The position numbers and the translations under genes are program-made. Shown here in pieces: positions 23,605 to 28,808 of a stretch of 46,255 nucleotides of DNA. The notes beneath the pieces were generated by a model. It saw nothing but the letters and a program-made list of their open reading frames with translations, was not told the DNA's origin and made no database searches. How positions within the stretch are numbered: the first letter of the stretch is position 1; every line of letters begins with the position of its first letter. The stretch covers positions 1 to 46,255 of the forward strand of contig CADAER010000026.1 of the NCBI GenBank assembly GCA_902787025.1, written 5' to 3'. Source of the DNA: Oscillospiraceae bacterium (GTDB taxonomy: Bacteria; Bacillota; Clostridia; Oscillospirales; Acutalibacteraceae).

Positions 23605-23639
23605 TAAATAACGCAGGGCTGTCTTGCGGCAGCCCTGCG
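23605..23639 (-). terminator. Terminator of the SCP2-aminotransferase-transketolase operon
   Basis: Perfect 10-bp stem CGCAGGGCTG/CAGCCCTGCG (23612-23621 / 23630-23639), then TTATTTAG on the minus strand, 18 bp after the last stop. Confidence 0.75.
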
Positions 23640-23657
23640 AAAATAACTGTTGTTTTA

Positions 23658-24470
23658 TTACTGAACGTAACTGCCGACCGTAAGAAGGAATCCGCCGAAC
23701 TGCGCGCCGAACTCGGGGCCGCCGTCCATAACGATTCTGCCGTTCTTGGTGGCATCGAGCATATCGTCGGTTCCCAGAAGGGTGCCGAGAGCGCTCTTGA
23801 AGGAGTCGAAGCGCAGAGTGAAGAAAGGCATTGCTCTCTTGTATTCGCCTCTGCCGGCTCTTGATTTGCCCGCCTTGATTCTGATGAACGCGGAAACCTC
23901 GGGATGACCTTCAACTGCCATTGCATAAACGCGGTCGGGGCTGGGAGTAGTCCATGCCTTGACCTCTTCGTGGCCGTTTTTGTTGAGAGTGCTTATACCG
24001 CTTGTGAGCAGGTAGAAAAAGCACTTGACCATAAGTTTCTGTGTTTCTTCATCTTCGGGGGCTTCTTTTGCGGTGAGAAGAGAACTCATTTTAAGAAGCA
24101 CCATCATAAATGAAAGGAAGGTGCCGGGGTTCTTTACCACACCGTGCATTTTGGGAAGAGTCTTGGGACCGATTGTGCCTTTGAAGAAGGCGTTCATCTG
24201 CTCAATACTCTTGAATTCAAGCTCTATGTCGGTATGTTCTTTGTCACTTACCTTATCTGCGTGAACTACCCACTCGCCCGAATTGATGATGAAATGAGTC
24301 GCGTATTTGCCTTCGGGAGCAGAAGGGTCGTCTGCGCTTATCTGAATTACGGCGTGCGTGTTCTCAAACTTTTTGGCAAGGCTCGGAACATCGCCCGCTA
24401 TTGTTTTCATAAGCGGAAGAGCGCCACAGAGAAAAAGCTTGTTGGTAAATATGTCATCTCTTGAAGCCAT
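23658..24470 (-). CDS. SCP2-like (sterol-carrier fold) protein, last gene of the operon
   Basis: 270 aa, no signal peptide. Two SCP2-like halves can be seen. The first, about residues 35-130, contains THFIINSGEWVVHAD, then DIELEFKSIEQMNAFFKG and MHGVVKNPGTFLSFM. The second, about 180-268, contains FFTLRFDSFKSALGTLLG, then NGRIVMDGGPEFGAQFGGFLLTVGSYV. This matches the strand-helix-hydrophobic pattern of SCP2 domains, which bind lipids or other apolar molecules. It is paralogous in layout to the first gene of the operon (27751). Context with an aminotransferase and transketolase suggests a carrier or chaperone for a hydrophobic substrate. Assignment is by pattern. Confidence 0.6.
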   Translation of the reverse strand: MASRDDIFTNKLFLCGALPLMKTIAGDVPSLAKKFENTHAVIQISADDPSAPEGKYATHFIINSGEWVVHADKVSDKEHTDIELEFKSIEQMNAFFKGTIGPKTLPKMHGVVKNPGTFLSFMMVLLKMSSLLTAKEAPEDEETQKLMVKCFFYLLTSGISTLNKNGHEEVKAWTTPSPDRVYAMAVEGHPEVSAFIRIKAGKSRAGRGEYKRAMPFFTLRFDSFKSALGTLLGTDDMLDATKNGRIVMDGGPEFGAQFGGFLLTVGSYVQ

Positions 24471-24504
24471 ATGAATCTGTCCTTTCTGTTATTGCTCTTC
24501 TGTA

Positions 24505-25512
24505 TTAATATTCGTCGTCCCAGTTGTCGTCTTCTTCGAAGTCTTTCTTCATAACCTCACGGACTGCAGCGATGATGCCGTTTGCGTCGATACCGGCGTC
24601 AGCCATAATGTCTTCCTGGAGACCTATCATAGCGAAGCCCTGGTGACCGAGCATCTTGAAAGCGCAGGCTTTGCCGCTGTCAACAACAACTTCGGAAACA
24701 GCCGAGCCGAGACCGCCTGTTACGAGGTGATCTTCAACCGTGATGATTCTTCTTGTTTCCATAACGGCTTTGAGGATAGCTTCTCTGTCAATGGGTTTGA
24801 TTGTGTGCATATTGAGAACACGGACGCTCAGACCGTCGGCGTTTGAAAGGAATTCAGCCGCTTTCTTTGCCTGCGCAACGCAGGAGCCGCAGGCGATGAC
24901 TGTGATGTCTGTGCCTTCGTTTACTGTAACCGCTTTGCCTACTTCAAAGCCGTAATCCATTGTGGTGTTGAGAACAAGGTCGAAGCCGCGGTTGATTCTG
25001 ATATAGAACGGGCCTTCTGTTGCGTATGCCGCGTTGACCGCGTTTGCTGTTTCAACGCCGTCGGCGGGAACGATAACCGTAAGGTTGGGCATTGCTCTTG
25101 TGATTGCGAGGTCGGTGATTGCGTGGTGGGTTGAACCCGCCTGACCGAAGGATGTGCCTGAGTGAGTGGCAACGATTTTGACATTGGCCTTCTGGTAGCA
25201 GATGTCGGTGTGGAGCTGGTCGCAGGCTCTCATTGAACAGAACGCGGAGAAGCCCGAAACGAAGGGAACCATACCCGCTTTTGCCATACCTGCGGCAACG
25301 CCCATCATATCCTGCTCGGCGATACCGACGTTGATAACTCTTTCAGGGCAGACTTTAAGAACGTCGCCCAGTTTTGTTGATTTTGCAAGGTCAGCCGTGA
25401 TGGCGACAACCTTGGGGTCGTTAAGCATAATGTCGGCAATTGCTTTGCCGTAAATCTCCGCGGTTGCAACCTCGGTCTGATCTATTGCGTTATAAACAAA
25501 TCCGCCTGCCAT
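24505..25512 (-). CDS. Transketolase, C-terminal subunit
   Basis: 335 aa. It is the Pyr plus C-terminal part of a two-subunit transketolase: the catalytic Glu66 in NVGIAEQDMMGVAAGMA, FVSGFSAFCSMRACDQLHTDICYQ, THSGTSFGQAGSTHHAITDLAI, and a C-terminal ITVEDHLVTGGLGSAVSEVV. The enzyme moves a two-carbon ketol unit between sugar phosphates using thiamine diphosphate. The acidic C-tail (EEDDNWDDEY) is unusual. It is 2 bp after the N-terminal subunit, an obligate pair. Placement in a non-pentose-phosphate operon suggests a special substrate. Confidence 0.92.
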   Translation of the reverse strand: MAGGFVYNAIDQTEVATAEIYGKAIADIMLNDPKVVAITADLAKSTKLGDVLKVCPERVINVGIAEQDMMGVAAGMAKAGMVPFVSGFSAFCSMRACDQLHTDICYQKANVKIVATHSGTSFGQAGSTHHAITDLAITRAMPNLTVIVPADGVETANAVNAAYATEGPFYIRINRGFDLVLNTTMDYGFEVGKAVTVNEGTDITVIACGSCVAQAKKAAEFLSNADGLSVRVLNMHTIKPIDREAILKAVMETRRIITVEDHLVTGGLGSAVSEVVVDSGKACAFKMLGHQGFAMIGLQEDIMADAGIDANGIIAAVREVMKKDFEEDDNWDDEY

Positions 25513-25514
25513 TA

Positions 25515-26390
25515 TTATTCGCCCTCCTTTTCTGCGCGTTCAACGCGTTTTGCGTAGTAAGCGTCAAGCGCTTTCTTATATTCTTCGAATGTCGGGTCGT
25601 CAATCGCCATATAATGGCAGTGATAGTCGCCCGCTACGGGGAGACCCGCGCCCTTCTGCGTATCCATAAGGATGCAGGTGGGGTTGCATTTTTCTTTCAA
25701 TCTCTCGATAGCGATATCGGTCGCGTCGCAGAGTTCCTTTATGTTGTTGCCGTCAACGCAGATTGTGTTGAAGCCGAAAGCGGTGAGTTTGTCCGCCAGG
25801 GGTTCGAGCTTCATAACATCTTCAGTGTTGCCGTCTATCATGCAGTGGTTTCTGTCAATATAAACTATGCAGTTGGAAAGCTGATAATGATTCATTGTCA
25901 TAAAGCCTTCCCAGTTTGAGCCTTCACCGAGCTCGCCGTCGCCGGTGACCATATAGGTAAGGAAATCCTTGCCCTGAAGTCTTGCCGCGAGAGCGGTGCC
26001 TGCCGCGATGGATGCGCCGTGACCGAGGGAGCCTGTTGACGCGTCAACGCCTACAACCTTGTTGGAGTCGAGGTGCATACCCATTTTTGAACCGGAAAGG
26101 TTGAATGTCTTGAGCATTTCGGGATCATTGAAGCCCTTGTCGCAGAGGACGGGAGCGTATGCTATTGCCGCGTGACCTTTTGAAAGAATGAACCTGTCTC
26201 TGTCTTCCCACTTGGGATCGTCAACTTTGATGTTGAGATATTTGTAATACATAATTGTGAGAAGGTCCAGGACGGACATACCGCCGCCGAGGTGGCCGCT
26301 GCCTGCCCATACCGTGGTCTGAAGAGTGAGGTGACGGAGTTCGTGCGCCTTCTTTTCAAGAGCAAGCCATTCCTGTTTTGATAATGCCAT
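25515..26390 (-). CDS. Transketolase, N-terminal (TPP-binding) subunit
   Basis: 291 aa, usual size for split N-terminal subunits. The ThDP motif is GDGELGEGSNWEG (150-162) through N181. Also visible are GSGHLGGGMSVLDLLTIMYY, DRFILSKGHAAIAYAP and SLGHGASIAAGTALAARL. Strong ribosome site AAGGAGGC. It follows the aminotransferase by 65 bp; that gap holds a 7-bp stem (CAGGCAG/CTGCCTG) that may process or attenuate the message. It acts with the gene at 24505. Confidence 0.92.
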   Translation of the reverse strand: MALSKQEWLALEKKAHELRHLTLQTTVWAGSGHLGGGMSVLDLLTIMYYKYLNIKVDDPKWEDRDRFILSKGHAAIAYAPVLCDKGFNDPEMLKTFNLSGSKMGMHLDSNKVVGVDASTGSLGHGASIAAGTALAARLQGKDFLTYMVTGDGELGEGSNWEGFMTMNHYQLSNCIVYIDRNHCMIDGNTEDVMKLEPLADKLTAFGFNTICVDGNNIKELCDATDIAIERLKEKCNPTCILMDTQKGAGLPVAGDYHCHYMAIDDPTFEEYKKALDAYYAKRVERAEKEGE

Positions 26391-26428
26391 AGGGGGTTGC
26401 CTCCTTAAAAGTTATTAATATAATTCAG

Positions 26429-26453
26429 GCAGCCGGTGAAGACTGCCTGTTAA
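26429..26453 (-). promoter_or_regulatory. Intercistronic stem-loop between aminotransferase and transketolase genes
   Basis: CAGGCAG...CTGCCTG arms (about 26430-26436 / 26446-26452) with a 9-nt loop. On the minus strand it is followed by AATTATATT rather than a long U-run, so it is more likely an mRNA processing or stability element than a full terminator. Confidence 0.4.
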
Positions 26454-26455
26454 AT

Positions 26456-27736
26456 TCAGCGAAGTTCGGGATGATTCTTACGAAGAACATTGAACGCTTC
26501 TTCGGCGATATCGACTGTCTGCTTGATGTCGTCGTCGGTGAGTGACGCGTTCATGAAATGGTTGTGGTGGTTGGTGAAGAAAATGCCTCTCTTTACGCAT
26601 TCCGCAATCCATTCCTGGTGAAGAATAAGCGAATCATCATCGTGAAGCATAAGGTAGAACAGCGCGGGCTCACCTGAAACCGTCAGGTGGAAGCCGTTGT
26701 TCGAAGCGGCGGCTTTGAGGCCGTCTGCAAGCTGTATGCCCTGCTCACGGAACTGCTTGGGTGTATTGAGTTTTTTCATTTTGTTGATACAGGCGATACC
26801 TGCGGCGAAGGGAACGGCGCTCATCCAGTAGGATCCTGTGTATGACAGCGAACTTGCCGCGTCTTTGAGCCAGTCTTTGCCGCAGAAAGCGGAAACGTTC
26901 CAGCCGTTTGCAAGCGCTTTACAGAAGCAGATGATATCAGCTTCGAAGCCGTAGAAATGGTCGGAACCCGCAAGGTCAAGACGGAAGCCTGCGCGGACGT
27001 CGTCTATGATGAGAACAATGCCCTCTTTTGTGCAGAGGTCGCGGACTTTCTGCCAGTAGCCTTCCGCGGGAAGGATATTGTCAAAGAAGTTGCCGTGAAG
27101 GTAGGGCATCGCGATGAACGCGGCGATTTCGCCTTTGTTCTCTTCAACTACCTTCTGGAAGCCTTCGAAGTCGTTCCAGTCAACATAGAGGTTGTTGCAA
27201 ACATCTTCGGGAGTGATGCCGGGATAGTCTATCTTCTGGCACCAAGCCGAAACGCCGTGATAATAACCGCGAACGAAGATTATCTTCTTGCGGTGTGTTG
27301 CGGCTCTCGCGGTGAGAACGGCGCCTGAGGTCGCGTCGTTGCCGTTCTTTGCCATAAACGCCCAGTCTGCGCTTGCTACCGTGTCAACGAGGAGTTCAGC
27401 GAACTCAACGATTTTGGTTGAGGGGCAGGTAACGCAGTTTTCGATTTTTGCCTGTTCCATAGCGGCGGCGTCAACATCGGGGTCATTGTAACCGAGAACA
27501 TTGGGGCCGTATGCGCACATATAGTCGATGAATCTGTTGCCGTCAAGGTCCCAGAAATAGGAACCCTGTGCCTTCTGGCTGAAGAACGGGAATGCCGAAG
27601 TGGGAATGTAGCAGCCTTCAGCGGGGCCCTGGTGGCCGTAAAGACCTGAGGGGATAACCTTGGTTGCTCTCTCGAACATTTCAACATTCTTTTCGTATGT
27701 GTAGGTTTTGAATTCTTTTTCTTTTTTAGTTGCCAT
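26456..27736 (-). CDS. Class III PLP aminotransferase (glutamate-1-semialdehyde aminomutase-like)
   Basis: 426 aa, full length for the family. PLP-binding Lys273 lies in ADIICFCKALANGWN and the cofactor-ring Asp is in IVLIIDDVRAGFR. Also visible are the substrate entry motif SYFWDLDGNRFIDYMCAYGPNVLGYNDP, the phosphate-binding NGNDATSGAVLTARAAT and GYYHGVSAWCQ. Sequence type is near the GSA aminomutase/omega-aminotransferase group, but no haem genes are nearby. It probably converts a carbonyl (sugar-derived or lipid-linked) to an amine. It sits 14 bp after the first SCP2-like gene and before the split transketolase. Confidence 0.88.
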   Translation of the reverse strand: MATKKEKEFKTYTYEKNVEMFERATKVIPSGLYGHQGPAEGCYIPTSAFPFFSQKAQGSYFWDLDGNRFIDYMCAYGPNVLGYNDPDVDAAAMEQAKIENCVTCPSTKIVEFAELLVDTVASADWAFMAKNGNDATSGAVLTARAATHRKKIIFVRGYYHGVSAWCQKIDYPGITPEDVCNNLYVDWNDFEGFQKVVEENKGEIAAFIAMPYLHGNFFDNILPAEGYWQKVRDLCTKEGIVLIIDDVRAGFRLDLAGSDHFYGFEADIICFCKALANGWNVSAFCGKDWLKDAASSLSYTGSYWMSAVPFAAGIACINKMKKLNTPKQFREQGIQLADGLKAAASNNGFHLTVSGEPALFYLMLHDDDSLILHQEWIAECVKRGIFFTNHHNHFMNASLTDDDIKQTVDIAEEAFNVLRKNHPELR

Positions 27737-27750
27737 TGATTCCGCCCCCT

Positions 27751-28509
27751 TTATGCAAGATAAACAGCTACTCTGTCAAGCAGTCTGTTCAGGTTGTCGA
27801 GCATGGAAATCATGCCCTTCATTGTGATTTCGCCTCTGCCGATGCAGGCAACGGCGTTGACCTTGCCGTCAAAGAGGTCTCTGGCAAGTTTTATGTCACG
27901 GAATTCCATCTTTGCTCTGAAATTGTCGCACGGGCATTTAAGCGCAACAAGGCGGTGGTCCTTGCAGCGGAGTGTCGCGCCGGGGCCGTCTTTGATGCTG
28001 AAAGCGATGTTGCCGTCAACAATGGCGCTCGCGGTGAACTTGCCGATTTCATCGTTGTTGGCAATCTGAGCGATCGCAACGGCGATAACGTCAAGCATAA
28101 GCTCAGTGCTGATGTTGAAGAAATCCTCATCTTCAAGGTCCGCGGGATCGGGTCTCATATATTTGTTGAGGAGATCCGTGAGAGCGGTGAAGTCCTTGAG
28201 AAGGAAATTGATGTGAGTGAAGCCTTTTGAGGGGATGGGAGTTACCGTGCCGTCAATAAGACCGTTGAATTTTTCACAGGAGCTGAACGGAAGTTTAACA
28301 TCAACTTTCTTGCAGCCCTGATCCATTCTGCATTTGCCGTTTTTGAAGGTGAGAGTCGCGCTGGGACCGCCCTTGACATCAAAGCCTATTCTGATGGGCT
28401 TTTTGTTTGTGAGAAGCGAAGGAGCCTCCGGTGCAAGCTCGCAAAGGTTCTCGAGTGCGCCCAGTATTGCATACATATTGATGTATGCGAGGGTTTTCTG
28501 ATCAATCAA
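27751..28509 (-). CDS. SCP2-like protein with two repeats, first gene of the operon
   Basis: 252 aa from a TTG at 28509, chosen because a perfect AAGGAGG (28524-28518) lies 8 nt upstream. A longer ATG reading to 28584 has no ribosome site and begins in the promoter. First half (about 30-125): IRIGFDVKGGPSATLTFKNG and VDVKLPFSSCEKFNGLIDG. Second half (about 150-250): IAFSIKDGPGATLRCKDHR, AKMEFRDIKLARDLFDGKVN, then the classical SCP2 ending AVACIGRGEITMKGMISMLDNLNRLLDRV. It likely binds an apolar ligand. It is paired with the similar gene at 23658 around one aminotransferase and one transketolase. Confidence 0.65.
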   Translation of the reverse strand: MIDQKTLAYINMYAILGALENLCELAPEAPSLLTNKKPIRIGFDVKGGPSATLTFKNGKCRMDQGCKKVDVKLPFSSCEKFNGLIDGTVTPIPSKGFTHINFLLKDFTALTDLLNKYMRPDPADLEDEDFFNISTELMLDVIAVAIAQIANNDEIGKFTASAIVDGNIAFSIKDGPGATLRCKDHRLVALKCPCDNFRAKMEFRDIKLARDLFDGKVNAVACIGRGEITMKGMISMLDNLNRLLDRVAVYLA

Positions 28510-28574
28510 CTGAAATTCCTCCTTAGTCTGATTTGAATATTGCCTCAATTTTGCTTTGCAAGAATATTCAATTA

Positions 28575-28603
28575 ATATTAACAAAATAATTATTAAATGT
28601 CAA
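28575..28603 (-). promoter_or_regulatory. Promoter of the SCP2-aminotransferase-transketolase operon
   Basis: Minus strand TTGACA (28603-28598), 17 nt, TAATAT (28580-28575). The next start codon is the TTG at 28509. Confidence 0.7.
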
Positions 28604-28706: not shown

Positions 28707-28808
28707 TTATCTCATTGAGGCAATGGCGACCGTCACAACGCTCAGGACGAGCAGAGCGACAAGCACAATCGCAACAATTCTGATAATCAGGGAACGCTTT
28801 TTATTCAA
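28707..28808 (-). CDS. 33-aa single-pass membrane miniprotein (TTG start)
   Basis: TTG at 28808, stop at 28707. The product starts with a basic MNKKRSLIIR and continues as one hydrophobic helix of about 22 residues (IVAIVLVALLVLSVVTVAIA), ending SMR. GGAGGG lies 8 nt before the TTG, a consensus promoter lies at 28841-28869 and a terminator at 28652-28686, so the unit is complete and contains nothing else. Similar tiny membrane proteins are common in Clostridia and lack a known role. Confidence 0.65.
   Translation of the reverse strand: MNKKRSLIIRIVAIVLVALLVLSVVTVAIASMR

What the first reader, a model, noticed from the sequence alone, without database searches (positions are those of the whole stretch)
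23605..28603. Unassigned operon: two double-SCP2 proteins, class III aminotransferase and split transketolase
One promoter (28603-28575) and one terminator (23639-23605) enclose SCP2-like protein, aminotransferase, transketolase N, transketolase C and a second SCP2-like protein. SCP2 domains bind lipids. A transketolase would add or remove a ketol unit and the aminotransferase would set an amine. No known pathway that I can name uses this set. A working idea is assembly of an amino-polyol on a hydrophobic carrier, loosely like aminopolyol hopanoid side chains or aminosugar-derived units, but neither a cyclase nor an aminoshikimate gene is present.
Basis: partly seen in the sequence, partly recalled or inferred. 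Interest (0 to 1): 0.85.

Follow-up and report, generated by a model that had tools for sequence, protein, structure and literature searches.

The report
Lipid-bound aminotransferase–transketolase operon
A conserved five-gene operon of gut bacteria pairs two lipid-carrier-like proteins with an aminotransferase and a transketolase remodelled at its substrate site, and probably breaks down (or makes) sphingolipid-type long-chain bases by a route I could not find described.

Summary
The operon is real and conserved. Of the 80 best relatives of its aminotransferase in public genomes, 54 show the same five genes in order, 10 run off a contig, and 16 have only the first two genes there. In 150 genomes of the family the aminotransferase (38), first SCP2 gene (37) and second SCP2 gene (36) are nested. 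The order recurs in the order of a Treponema MAG. Both end genes model as double SCP2 folds.

Congeners have a second transketolase. The operon's copy keeps the catalytic histidines but lost polar substrate contacts: E. coli D469 is Ala in 58 of 58, R91 is Asn in 60 of 60; 30 other family transketolases keep them, bar one at D469. The aminotransferase's nearest solved relative is FumI, which acts on a sphingoid-like base. In one locus serine-palmitoyltransferase-like and ketosphinganine-reductase-like genes follow it.

Best reading: the aminotransferase interconverts a long-chain 2-amino-1,3-diol and its 2-ketone, the transketolase cleaves or forms its C2–C3 bond against a fatty aldehyde, and SCP2 proteins hold the lipid. 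Breakdown is likelier than synthesis. Substrate and direction are inferred.

The parts
28575..28603 (-). sigma-70-like promoter TTGACA-17-TAATAT with TG before the -10
   Evidence: the -10 ends 65 bases before the corrected SCPA start
27751..28509 (-). SCPA: double SCP2-fold protein, probable TTG start, AAGGAGGA ribosome site at 28524-28517
26456..27736 (-). AT3: class III PLP aminotransferase nearest FumI; presumed PLP lysine K273 (77 of 77 full-length relatives)
26426..26449 (-). hairpin between AT3 and TKN (terminator-like, 9 pairs)
   Evidence: function not tested
25515..26390 (-). TKN: thiamine-diphosphate-binding half of a split transketolase paralog
24505..25512 (-). TKC: pyrimidine-binding and C-terminal half of the split transketolase; Ala at E. 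coli positions 469 and 358
23658..24470 (-). SCPB: second SCP2-fold protein, paralog of SCPA
23612..23639 (-). terminator-like hairpin after SCPB

Best explanation
A two-enzyme pathway on a long-chain lipid substrate. SHOWN: the five genes are one inherited unit; AT3 with SCPA can occur without the rest; both end proteins model as SCP2 folds; the transketolase differs from the family's other transketolases by an intact catalytic set with a de-polarised substrate site. INFERRED: AT3 interconverts a sphingoid-type 2-amino-1,3-diol with its 2-ketone (amino group to pyruvate, as in FumI, or back). The transketolase breaks the C2-C3 bond of that 1,3-dihydroxy-2-ketone, leaving a fatty aldehyde and a two-carbon ketol unit on thiamine diphosphate that passes to a small aldehyde or sugar. 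SCPA and SCPB hold the greasy chain for AT3 and for the transketolase, as UbiJ is thought to do for ubiquinone intermediates (recalled). I judge breakdown of sphingoid bases, taken up in the gut or rumen, likelier (about 60:40) than the same steps run backwards as synthesis.
For: Linkage: 54 of 80 loci with five genes in order; in 150 family genomes AT3 in 38, SCPA in 37, SCPB in 36, nested. Same order in L208, L209 and L211-L216, and in L210 up to a contig end. SCP2 fold. Transketolase site (E. coli numbering): R91 to N 60/60, G99 to I/M/V 60/60, R358 to A/S 58/58, D469 to A 58/58, against R 30/30, G 30/30, R 29/30, D 29/30 in 30 other transketolases of the family (the 30 best Pfam scorers); H26, H66, H100, H261, H461, H473, R520 kept. 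In 14 distant members R91N and G99M 14/14, D469A 13/13. In E. coli transketolase D469T raises activity on propionaldehyde fivefold, and removes salt bridges with R91 and H100 (passages of PMC6310800). AT3's best PDB match is FumI, 288 bits, next 161; FumI moves the C2 amine of hydrolysed fumonisin B1 to pyruvate (abstract and passages of PMC2933618). L057: AT3 followed about 40 bases on by SPT-like (536 bits) and ketosphinganine-reductase-like (229 bits) genes. L201: TKN-TKC-SCPB, Zn alcohol dehydrogenase, aldehyde dehydrogenase, SCPA, AT3 in one row, fitting disposal of an aldehyde. A transketolase plus a transaminase makes an amino-triol in vitro (passages of PMC5813273).
Against: FumI is a distant relative (identity not computed), and relatives at 35-40% identity on plasmids lie in varied clusters (14 records; 5 looked at), so FumI likeness does not fix the substrate. 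The SPT neighbour is seen in one locus, both its hits are below NCBI's curated cut-offs, and SPT beside a degrading enzyme is odd. L201's dehydrogenases are seen in one locus. A gene of the NAD-dependent epimerase family follows SCPB in 7 of 80 loci, and a ROK sugar kinase in 3, which could point to sugar chemistry. In 17 genomes searched, 11 have SCPA-AT3 and no SCPB, and one locus, L207, has SCPA without AT3. R358 is kept as R or K in 5 of 14 distant members, and H461 and R520, phosphate contacts as recalled, are kept. No ligand, cavity or activity was tested. A statistical link with ceramidase-like genes is not usable: most listed hits are near or below cut-off, relatedness is not controlled, and the own-genome copy seems to lack the catalytic serine (motif recalled).
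Confidence: 0.42

Rival explanations
1. Same two reactions run as synthesis: the transketolase adds a ketol unit (from a ketose phosphate, or from hydroxypyruvate made when AT3 takes its amine from serine) to a fatty aldehyde, and AT3 aminates the product to a sphinganine-type base, a route that needs no serine palmitoyltransferase.
For: The chemistry is that of engineered transketolase-transaminase cascades, one of which used L-serine as amine donor (passages of PMC5813273). In 150 family genomes none of the 38 with AT3 has an SPT-model hit at E<=1e-40; 12 others do, 7 of them SPT-grade above 510 bits (p 0.037 for the 12). Among 50 genomes (of 80) SPT-grade hits in 3 of 11 without and 1 of 39 with the TK module (p 0.03).
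Against: Family-level avoidance is not significant for the 7 SPT-grade genomes (p 0.19), and relatedness is not controlled. In 241 genomes of the Treponema MAG's order SPT-grade hits (37) and SCPA (26) overlap at chance level (4; p 1.0), and two genomes, G590 and G682, have the full operon and SPT. An aldehyde dehydrogenase in L201 argues for removal of aldehyde.
Confidence: 0.25
2. Another hydrophobic substrate: a long-chain alpha-hydroxyketone or aminoketone signal, a fumonisin-like compound, or another amino lipid, handled by the same enzyme pair and carriers.
For: Everything except the SPT neighbour fits any greasy aldehyde or ketone; FumI-type enzymes have varied contexts.
Against: SPT-like and reductase-like neighbours in L057. 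No further gene family recurs in more than 12 of the 80 loci, apart from an antisense-ORF artefact in 17; the neighbours were not all annotated.
Confidence: 0.22
3. Amino-polyol hopanoid or aminosugar assembly.
For: Class III aminotransferase plus ketol transfer could build an amino-polyol. After SCPB, 7 of 80 loci have an NAD-dependent epimerase-family gene (one of them, L022, scanned with NCBIfam: far sub-cut-off match to the hopanoid-associated HpnA model, 32 against 368 bits), and 3 have a ROK sugar kinase.
Against: The transketolase lost several polar contacts; AT3 resembles FumI; the epimerase-family gene is found in only 7 of 80 loci. A hopanoid-cyclase search was not run.
Confidence: 0.05
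4. Ordinary housekeeping split transketolase that happens to sit beside unrelated genes.
For: It is the only transketolase found in the window's assembly; split transketolases are normal in this family.
Against: Congeners G015 and G145 have a second one; operon and other copies differ at pocket residues; co-inheritance of AT3, SCPA and SCPB in fixed order with it.
Confidence: 0.02

Closest known systems
FumI, aminopentol (hydrolysed fumonisin B1) aminotransferase, PDB 6hbs
   Same: Nearest solved relative of AT3 (E 1e-84); shares MCAYGPN, KNG.DAT, DDVRAGFR, ANG and HN.F motifs
   Different: FumI is a detoxifying enzyme of Sphingopyxis; no transketolase or SCP2 partner is known to me (recalled, its cluster was not examined)
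Split transketolase of Carboxydothermus, PDB 6yaj/6yak
   Same: Same two-subunit layout; nearest solved relative of both halves
   Different: Operon enzyme lacks the polar residues at 91, 358 and 469 that other transketolases of its family keep
Engineered transketolase-transaminase cascades to amino-alcohols
   Same: Same two reaction types; product 2-amino-1,3,4-butanetriol (passages of PMC5813273)
   Different: Man-made, short polar aldehyde; here natural, with SCP2 partners
UbiJ, SCP2-domain accessory protein of ubiquinone synthesis, PDB 6h6o
   Same: SCP2 fold in a protein that serves soluble enzymes acting on a lipid (fold match; role recalled)
   Different: One SCP2 domain, different enzymes
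Sphingoid-base metabolism by serine palmitoyltransferase (synthesis) and sphingosine-1-phosphate lyase plus fatty aldehyde dehydrogenase (breakdown)
   Same: Would connect the same end points, sphingoid base and fatty aldehyde or acyl chain (recalled)
   Different: The proposed scheme needs neither phosphorylation nor lyase; SPT was not found in the incomplete window genome; a lyase was not searched for
PigD/PigE of prodigiosin synthesis
   Same: Thiamine-diphosphate enzyme plus class III aminotransferase on an alkyl aldehyde (recalled)
   Different: PigD uses pyruvate (recalled); the operon enzyme keeps transketolase histidines 100 and 261

Membership tests
SCP2 superfamily | SCP2 fold | tested here: met
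   AF2 pLDDT 94.4 and 93.3; Foldseek lists led by SCP2 proteins and alkylsulfatases, best E 6e-5 to 2e-4, probability 1.00, target TM mostly 0.45-0.67 for SCP2 proteins
SCP2 superfamily | Hydrophobic lipid-binding cavity | not tested
   No cavity calculation or ligand data
Transketolase | Catalytic residues H26, H66, H100, H261, H473 | tested here: met
   60 of 60 and 58 of 58 operon sequences
Transketolase | Sugar-phosphate and alpha-hydroxyl recognition (R358, D469, with R91) | tested here: not met
   A/S 58/58, A 58/58, N 60/60; but H461 and R520 kept, and R358 kept as R/K in 5 of 14 distant members
Transketolase | Sugar-phosphate ketol transfer activity | not testable with these tools
   needs assay
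FumI-type class III aminotransferase | PLP lysine and FumI-like motifs | tested here: met
   K273 77 of 77; motifs shared with 6hbs
FumI-type class III aminotransferase | Activity on long-chain 2-amino-alcohol | not testable with these tools
   needs assay
Glutamate-1-semialdehyde aminomutase | Reaches NCBI equivalog cut-off | tested here: not met
   198.7 bits against 527.3 for TIGR00713
SPT-based sphingolipid synthesis | Serine palmitoyltransferase in the genome | tested here: inconclusive
   none at E<=1e-40 in G000, but the assembly is 87.7% complete
Aminopolyol hopanoid synthesis | Hopanoid cyclase and HpnH/HpnG genes | not tested
   no genome search was run for them
1-deoxyxylulose-5-phosphate synthase | DXS-type residues at positions 100 and 261 | tested here: not met
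   a partial E. coli DXS aligns F at both, operon enzymes H; alignment of distant proteins

The most novel reading that the evidence does not exclude
A natural, SCP2-assisted transketolase-transaminase route that makes sphingoid bases without serine palmitoyltransferase, found in gut and rumen Clostridia, in the order of a Treponema MAG and in a Coriobacteriia MAG. In its boldest form AT3 takes its amine from serine and thereby makes the hydroxypyruvate that the transketolase uses, so that serine plus fatty aldehyde gives sphinganine plus CO2.
Probability: 0.25. Interest if true: 0.88.

Novelty: new variant of a known kind. Interest (0 to 1): 0.7.

Why it matters
Sphingolipids from diet, host and bacteria are abundant in the gut (a review passes on an estimate of about 1 g of bacterial sphingolipid in the gastrointestinal tract: passage of PMC11765627). 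If the reading holds, a group of gut and rumen anaerobes known here from metagenome assemblies has a new way to consume, or to make, sphingoid bases, and nature has a transketolase for long-chain aldehydes, whereas engineers have extended the E. coli enzyme to short nonpolar and aromatic aldehydes (passages of PMC6310800). It also gives testable roles to two SCP2-fold families, one of which (SCPB) Pfam hardly sees (4 of 45). The test is short: three purified activities and mass spectrometry.

Tried and rejected
Transketolase replaces SPT: predicted that operon genomes lack SPT. The family data fit (0 of 38; p 0.19 for 7 SPT-grade genomes, 0.037 for all 12 hits) but the Treponema-order data do not (overlap 4, chance level). 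Kept only as a rival.

Ceramidase link: PF04734 in 21 of 38 AT3-positive and 7 of 112 AT3-negative genomes (p 5.8e-10), but most listed hits are weak, relatedness is not controlled, and the own-genome copy has GDTGPR where the catalytic motif, recalled, is GD.SPN. Not used as support.

Two sub-units from co-divergence: pairwise identities tie TKN, TKC and SCPB together (0.84-0.90) more than AT3 to them (0.67-0.73), but SCPA correlates with SCPB (0.82) as well as with AT3 (0.78) (44 loci); so SCPA's tie to AT3 rests on loci that have those two alone.

RNA control: three sub-threshold Rfam matches only. RmuC near the operon in some loci is incidental (name recalled from the sequences). Sequence-profile search of PDB found nothing for SCPB and for SCPA only hits at E 0.085 and above, an SCP2 domain among them at 0.5. 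No plasmid-borne relative of TKC at E<=1e-70. Literature: searches, combining transketolase with SCP2, gene-cluster, sphinganine or sphingoid-base terms, returned 0 papers in the open library; subscription journals and preprints were not covered. Odds changed on checking: the novel case, first worded for both directions at 0.3, is now the synthesis form at 0.25 to agree with the rival.
Full report
WHAT IS THERE. Five minus-strand genes lie between 28603 and 23612. In order: SCPA (27751-28509; probable TTG start behind AAGGAGGA), AT3 (26456-27736), TKN (25515-26390), TKC (24505-25512), SCPB (23658-24470). Pfam gives class III aminotransferase, transketolase N, transketolase pyrimidine-binding and C domains, and SCP2 for SCPA; SCPB has no SCP2 match in the window copy.

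THE SCP2 CLAIM. AlphaFold2 models from family alignments (48 SCPA and 45 SCPB sequences) have mean pLDDT 94.4 and 93.3. Foldseek against PDB is led, for SCPA, by alkylsulfatases (which I recall as having an SCP2-like domain) and then SCP2 proteins, and for SCPB by an SCP2 protein and then the same mixture; the best E-values are 6e-5 to 2e-4, probability 1.00, and TM-scores on SCP2 targets mostly 0.45-0.67, since one domain aligns at a time. Profile comparison shows that SCPA is an internal duplication (96.4%) and SCPB its paralog (96.9%); SCPB's halves are not alike by sequence (0.3%). Lipid binding is not shown.

LINKAGE. A genome-contig scan with AT3 returned 80 loci, the best of 89. All five genes in order: 54; cut by a contig end but consistent: 10; SCPA-AT3 without the transketolase part at that place: 16. 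Of 17 genomes without it at the locus (those 16 plus the contig-cut L033), 6 carry SCPB elsewhere with TKN-TKC beside it and 11 show no SCPB. Outside the five, no gene family occurs in more than 12 of the 80 loci apart from an antisense-ORF artefact in 17. An NAD-dependent epimerase-family gene follows SCPB in 7 loci and a ROK sugar kinase in 3 (3 of the 7 and 1 of the 3 were scanned with Pfam). In 150 genomes of the window's family AT3 is in 38, SCPA in 37 and SCPB in 36, all nested; the missing ones, G083 (SCPA, SCPB) and G077 (SCPB), have AT3 near a contig edge, and in G022 the SCPB match is weak and on another contig. In 391 genomes of the class SCPA occurs only in the window genome, G511 and G520, and in the last two only SCPA-AT3 is seen at that place. 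In 241 genomes of the order of a Treponema MAG 26 have a SCPA-like match. I fetched 20 of those 26 regions, three of them with weak matches. Among the other 17, the five-gene order is present in 8 (L208, L209, L211-L216), L210 has it up to a contig end, L201 and L202 have both halves in other arrangements, and 6 lack the transketolase part there; one of these, L207, lacks AT3 too.

NOT THE HOUSEKEEPING TRANSKETOLASE. The window's assembly (87.7% complete) shows one transketolase, but its two congeners (97%) have two each.

A REMODELLED ACTIVE SITE. I aligned the 60 full TKN of 63 and 58 full TKC of 60 found with E. coli TktA and 30 other transketolases of the family, the best Pfam scorers. Histidines 26, 66, 100, 261, 461, 473 and R520 are invariant in the operon set. 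R91 is Asn in 60/60 (Arg in 30/30 others), G99 is Ile, Met or Val in 60/60 (Gly 30/30), R358 is Ala or Ser in 58/58 (Arg 29/30), D469 is Ala in 58/58 (Asp 29/30). Fourteen distant members keep R91N and G99M (14/14) and D469A (13/13, one cut); R358 is Ala in nine, Arg or Lys in five. In E. coli, D469T removes salt bridges with R91 and H100 and raises activity on propionaldehyde fivefold (passages of PMC6310800). I infer a non-phosphorylated, greasy aldehyde or ketone at this site; the kept H461 and R520 leave room for a phosphorylated partner. H100 and H261, which align to Phe in a partial E. coli DXS, suggest that ketol rather than acetyl transfer is kept.

THE AMINOTRANSFERASE. Best solved relative: FumI, 288 bits, against 161 for the best glutamate-semialdehyde aminomutase. 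FumI moves the C2 amine of hydrolysed fumonisin B1, a sphingoid-like base, to pyruvate (abstract and passages of PMC2933618). Caution: relatives at 35-40% identity on 14 plasmids lie in varied clusters in the 5 that I looked at.

THE SPHINGOID LINK. In L057, in whose genome no SCPB was found, AT3 is followed about 40 bases on by a serine-palmitoyltransferase-like gene (536 bits, cut-off 640) and a ketosphinganine-reductase-like gene (229 bits, cut-off 400). These two are neighbours in 9 of 11 SPT regions fetched. This adjacency to AT3 is one locus.

DIRECTION. For breakdown: FumI works as a deaminase; L201 has an alcohol and an aldehyde dehydrogenase between the two halves in one row; TetR-type genes abut SCPB in L208 and L215. 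For synthesis: engineered transketolase-transaminase cascades make such products, once with serine as donor (passages of PMC5813273); within the family SPT and the operon do not co-occur (0 of 38; p 0.19 for 7 SPT-grade genomes, 0.037 for all 12 hits); in 50 genomes, of 80, SPT is in 3 of 11 without and 1 of 39 with the module (p 0.03). Against synthesis as a replacement of SPT: in the Treponema order the overlap is at chance level and two genomes have both. I lean to breakdown at about 60:40.

VERDICT. The mechanism is an inference from three lines: SCP2 folds, a de-polarised transketolase site, and a FumI-like aminotransferase with one sphingolipid-type neighbour. Four searches of open papers found no description. 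It is a new variant of sphingoid-type lipid metabolism if correct.

Noticed in passing
window 28707-28808 (-): A 33-residue hydrophobic ORF with a promoter-like site (28869-28841) before it and a strong terminator-like hairpin (28686-28660) after it lies just upstream of the operon.
   Followed up: no
L177-L187; G001, G038, G065, G069, G074, G079, G104: SPT-grade genes (over 510 bits) in 7 of 150 genomes of this clostridial family, and SPT paired with a ketosphinganine-reductase-like gene in 9 of 11 regions fetched; SPT-grade hits also in 37 of 241 genomes of the Treponema MAG's order: possible sphingolipid makers outside the usual groups.
   Followed up: partly
L201 5034-7615: Zn alcohol dehydrogenase and aldehyde dehydrogenase between the transketolase and aminotransferase halves, all in one direction.
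   Followed up: partly
L022, L029, L038, L039, L040, L042, L043; L075, L079, L080: An NAD-dependent epimerase-family gene 11-149 bases after SCPB in seven loci, and a ROK sugar kinase 51-77 bases after it in three.
   Followed up: partly
L032 7067-8356, L065 5995-7197, L047 5968-7131: Beside SCPA-AT3 without transketolase: an MFS transporter in both Treponema MAGs and an iron alcohol dehydrogenase in a Lachnospiraceae MAG.
   Followed up: no
L225 5103-6416 and 28 of 150 family genomes: Ceramidase-like (PF04734) proteins are enriched in operon-bearing genomes, but weak hits and an apparently missing catalytic serine leave the meaning open.
   Followed up: partly
L217-L219: Distant aminotransferase (36-37%) with distant SCPA (23-25% in L218 and L219) and no transketolase: an older or different branch of the SCPA-AT3 pair.
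   Followed up: no
L231 2103-7218 (Shinella plasmid pShin-08): A FumI-like aminotransferase one gene away from a fused alpha-ketoacid dehydrogenase, another thiamine-diphosphate enzyme near this aminotransferase type.
   Followed up: no
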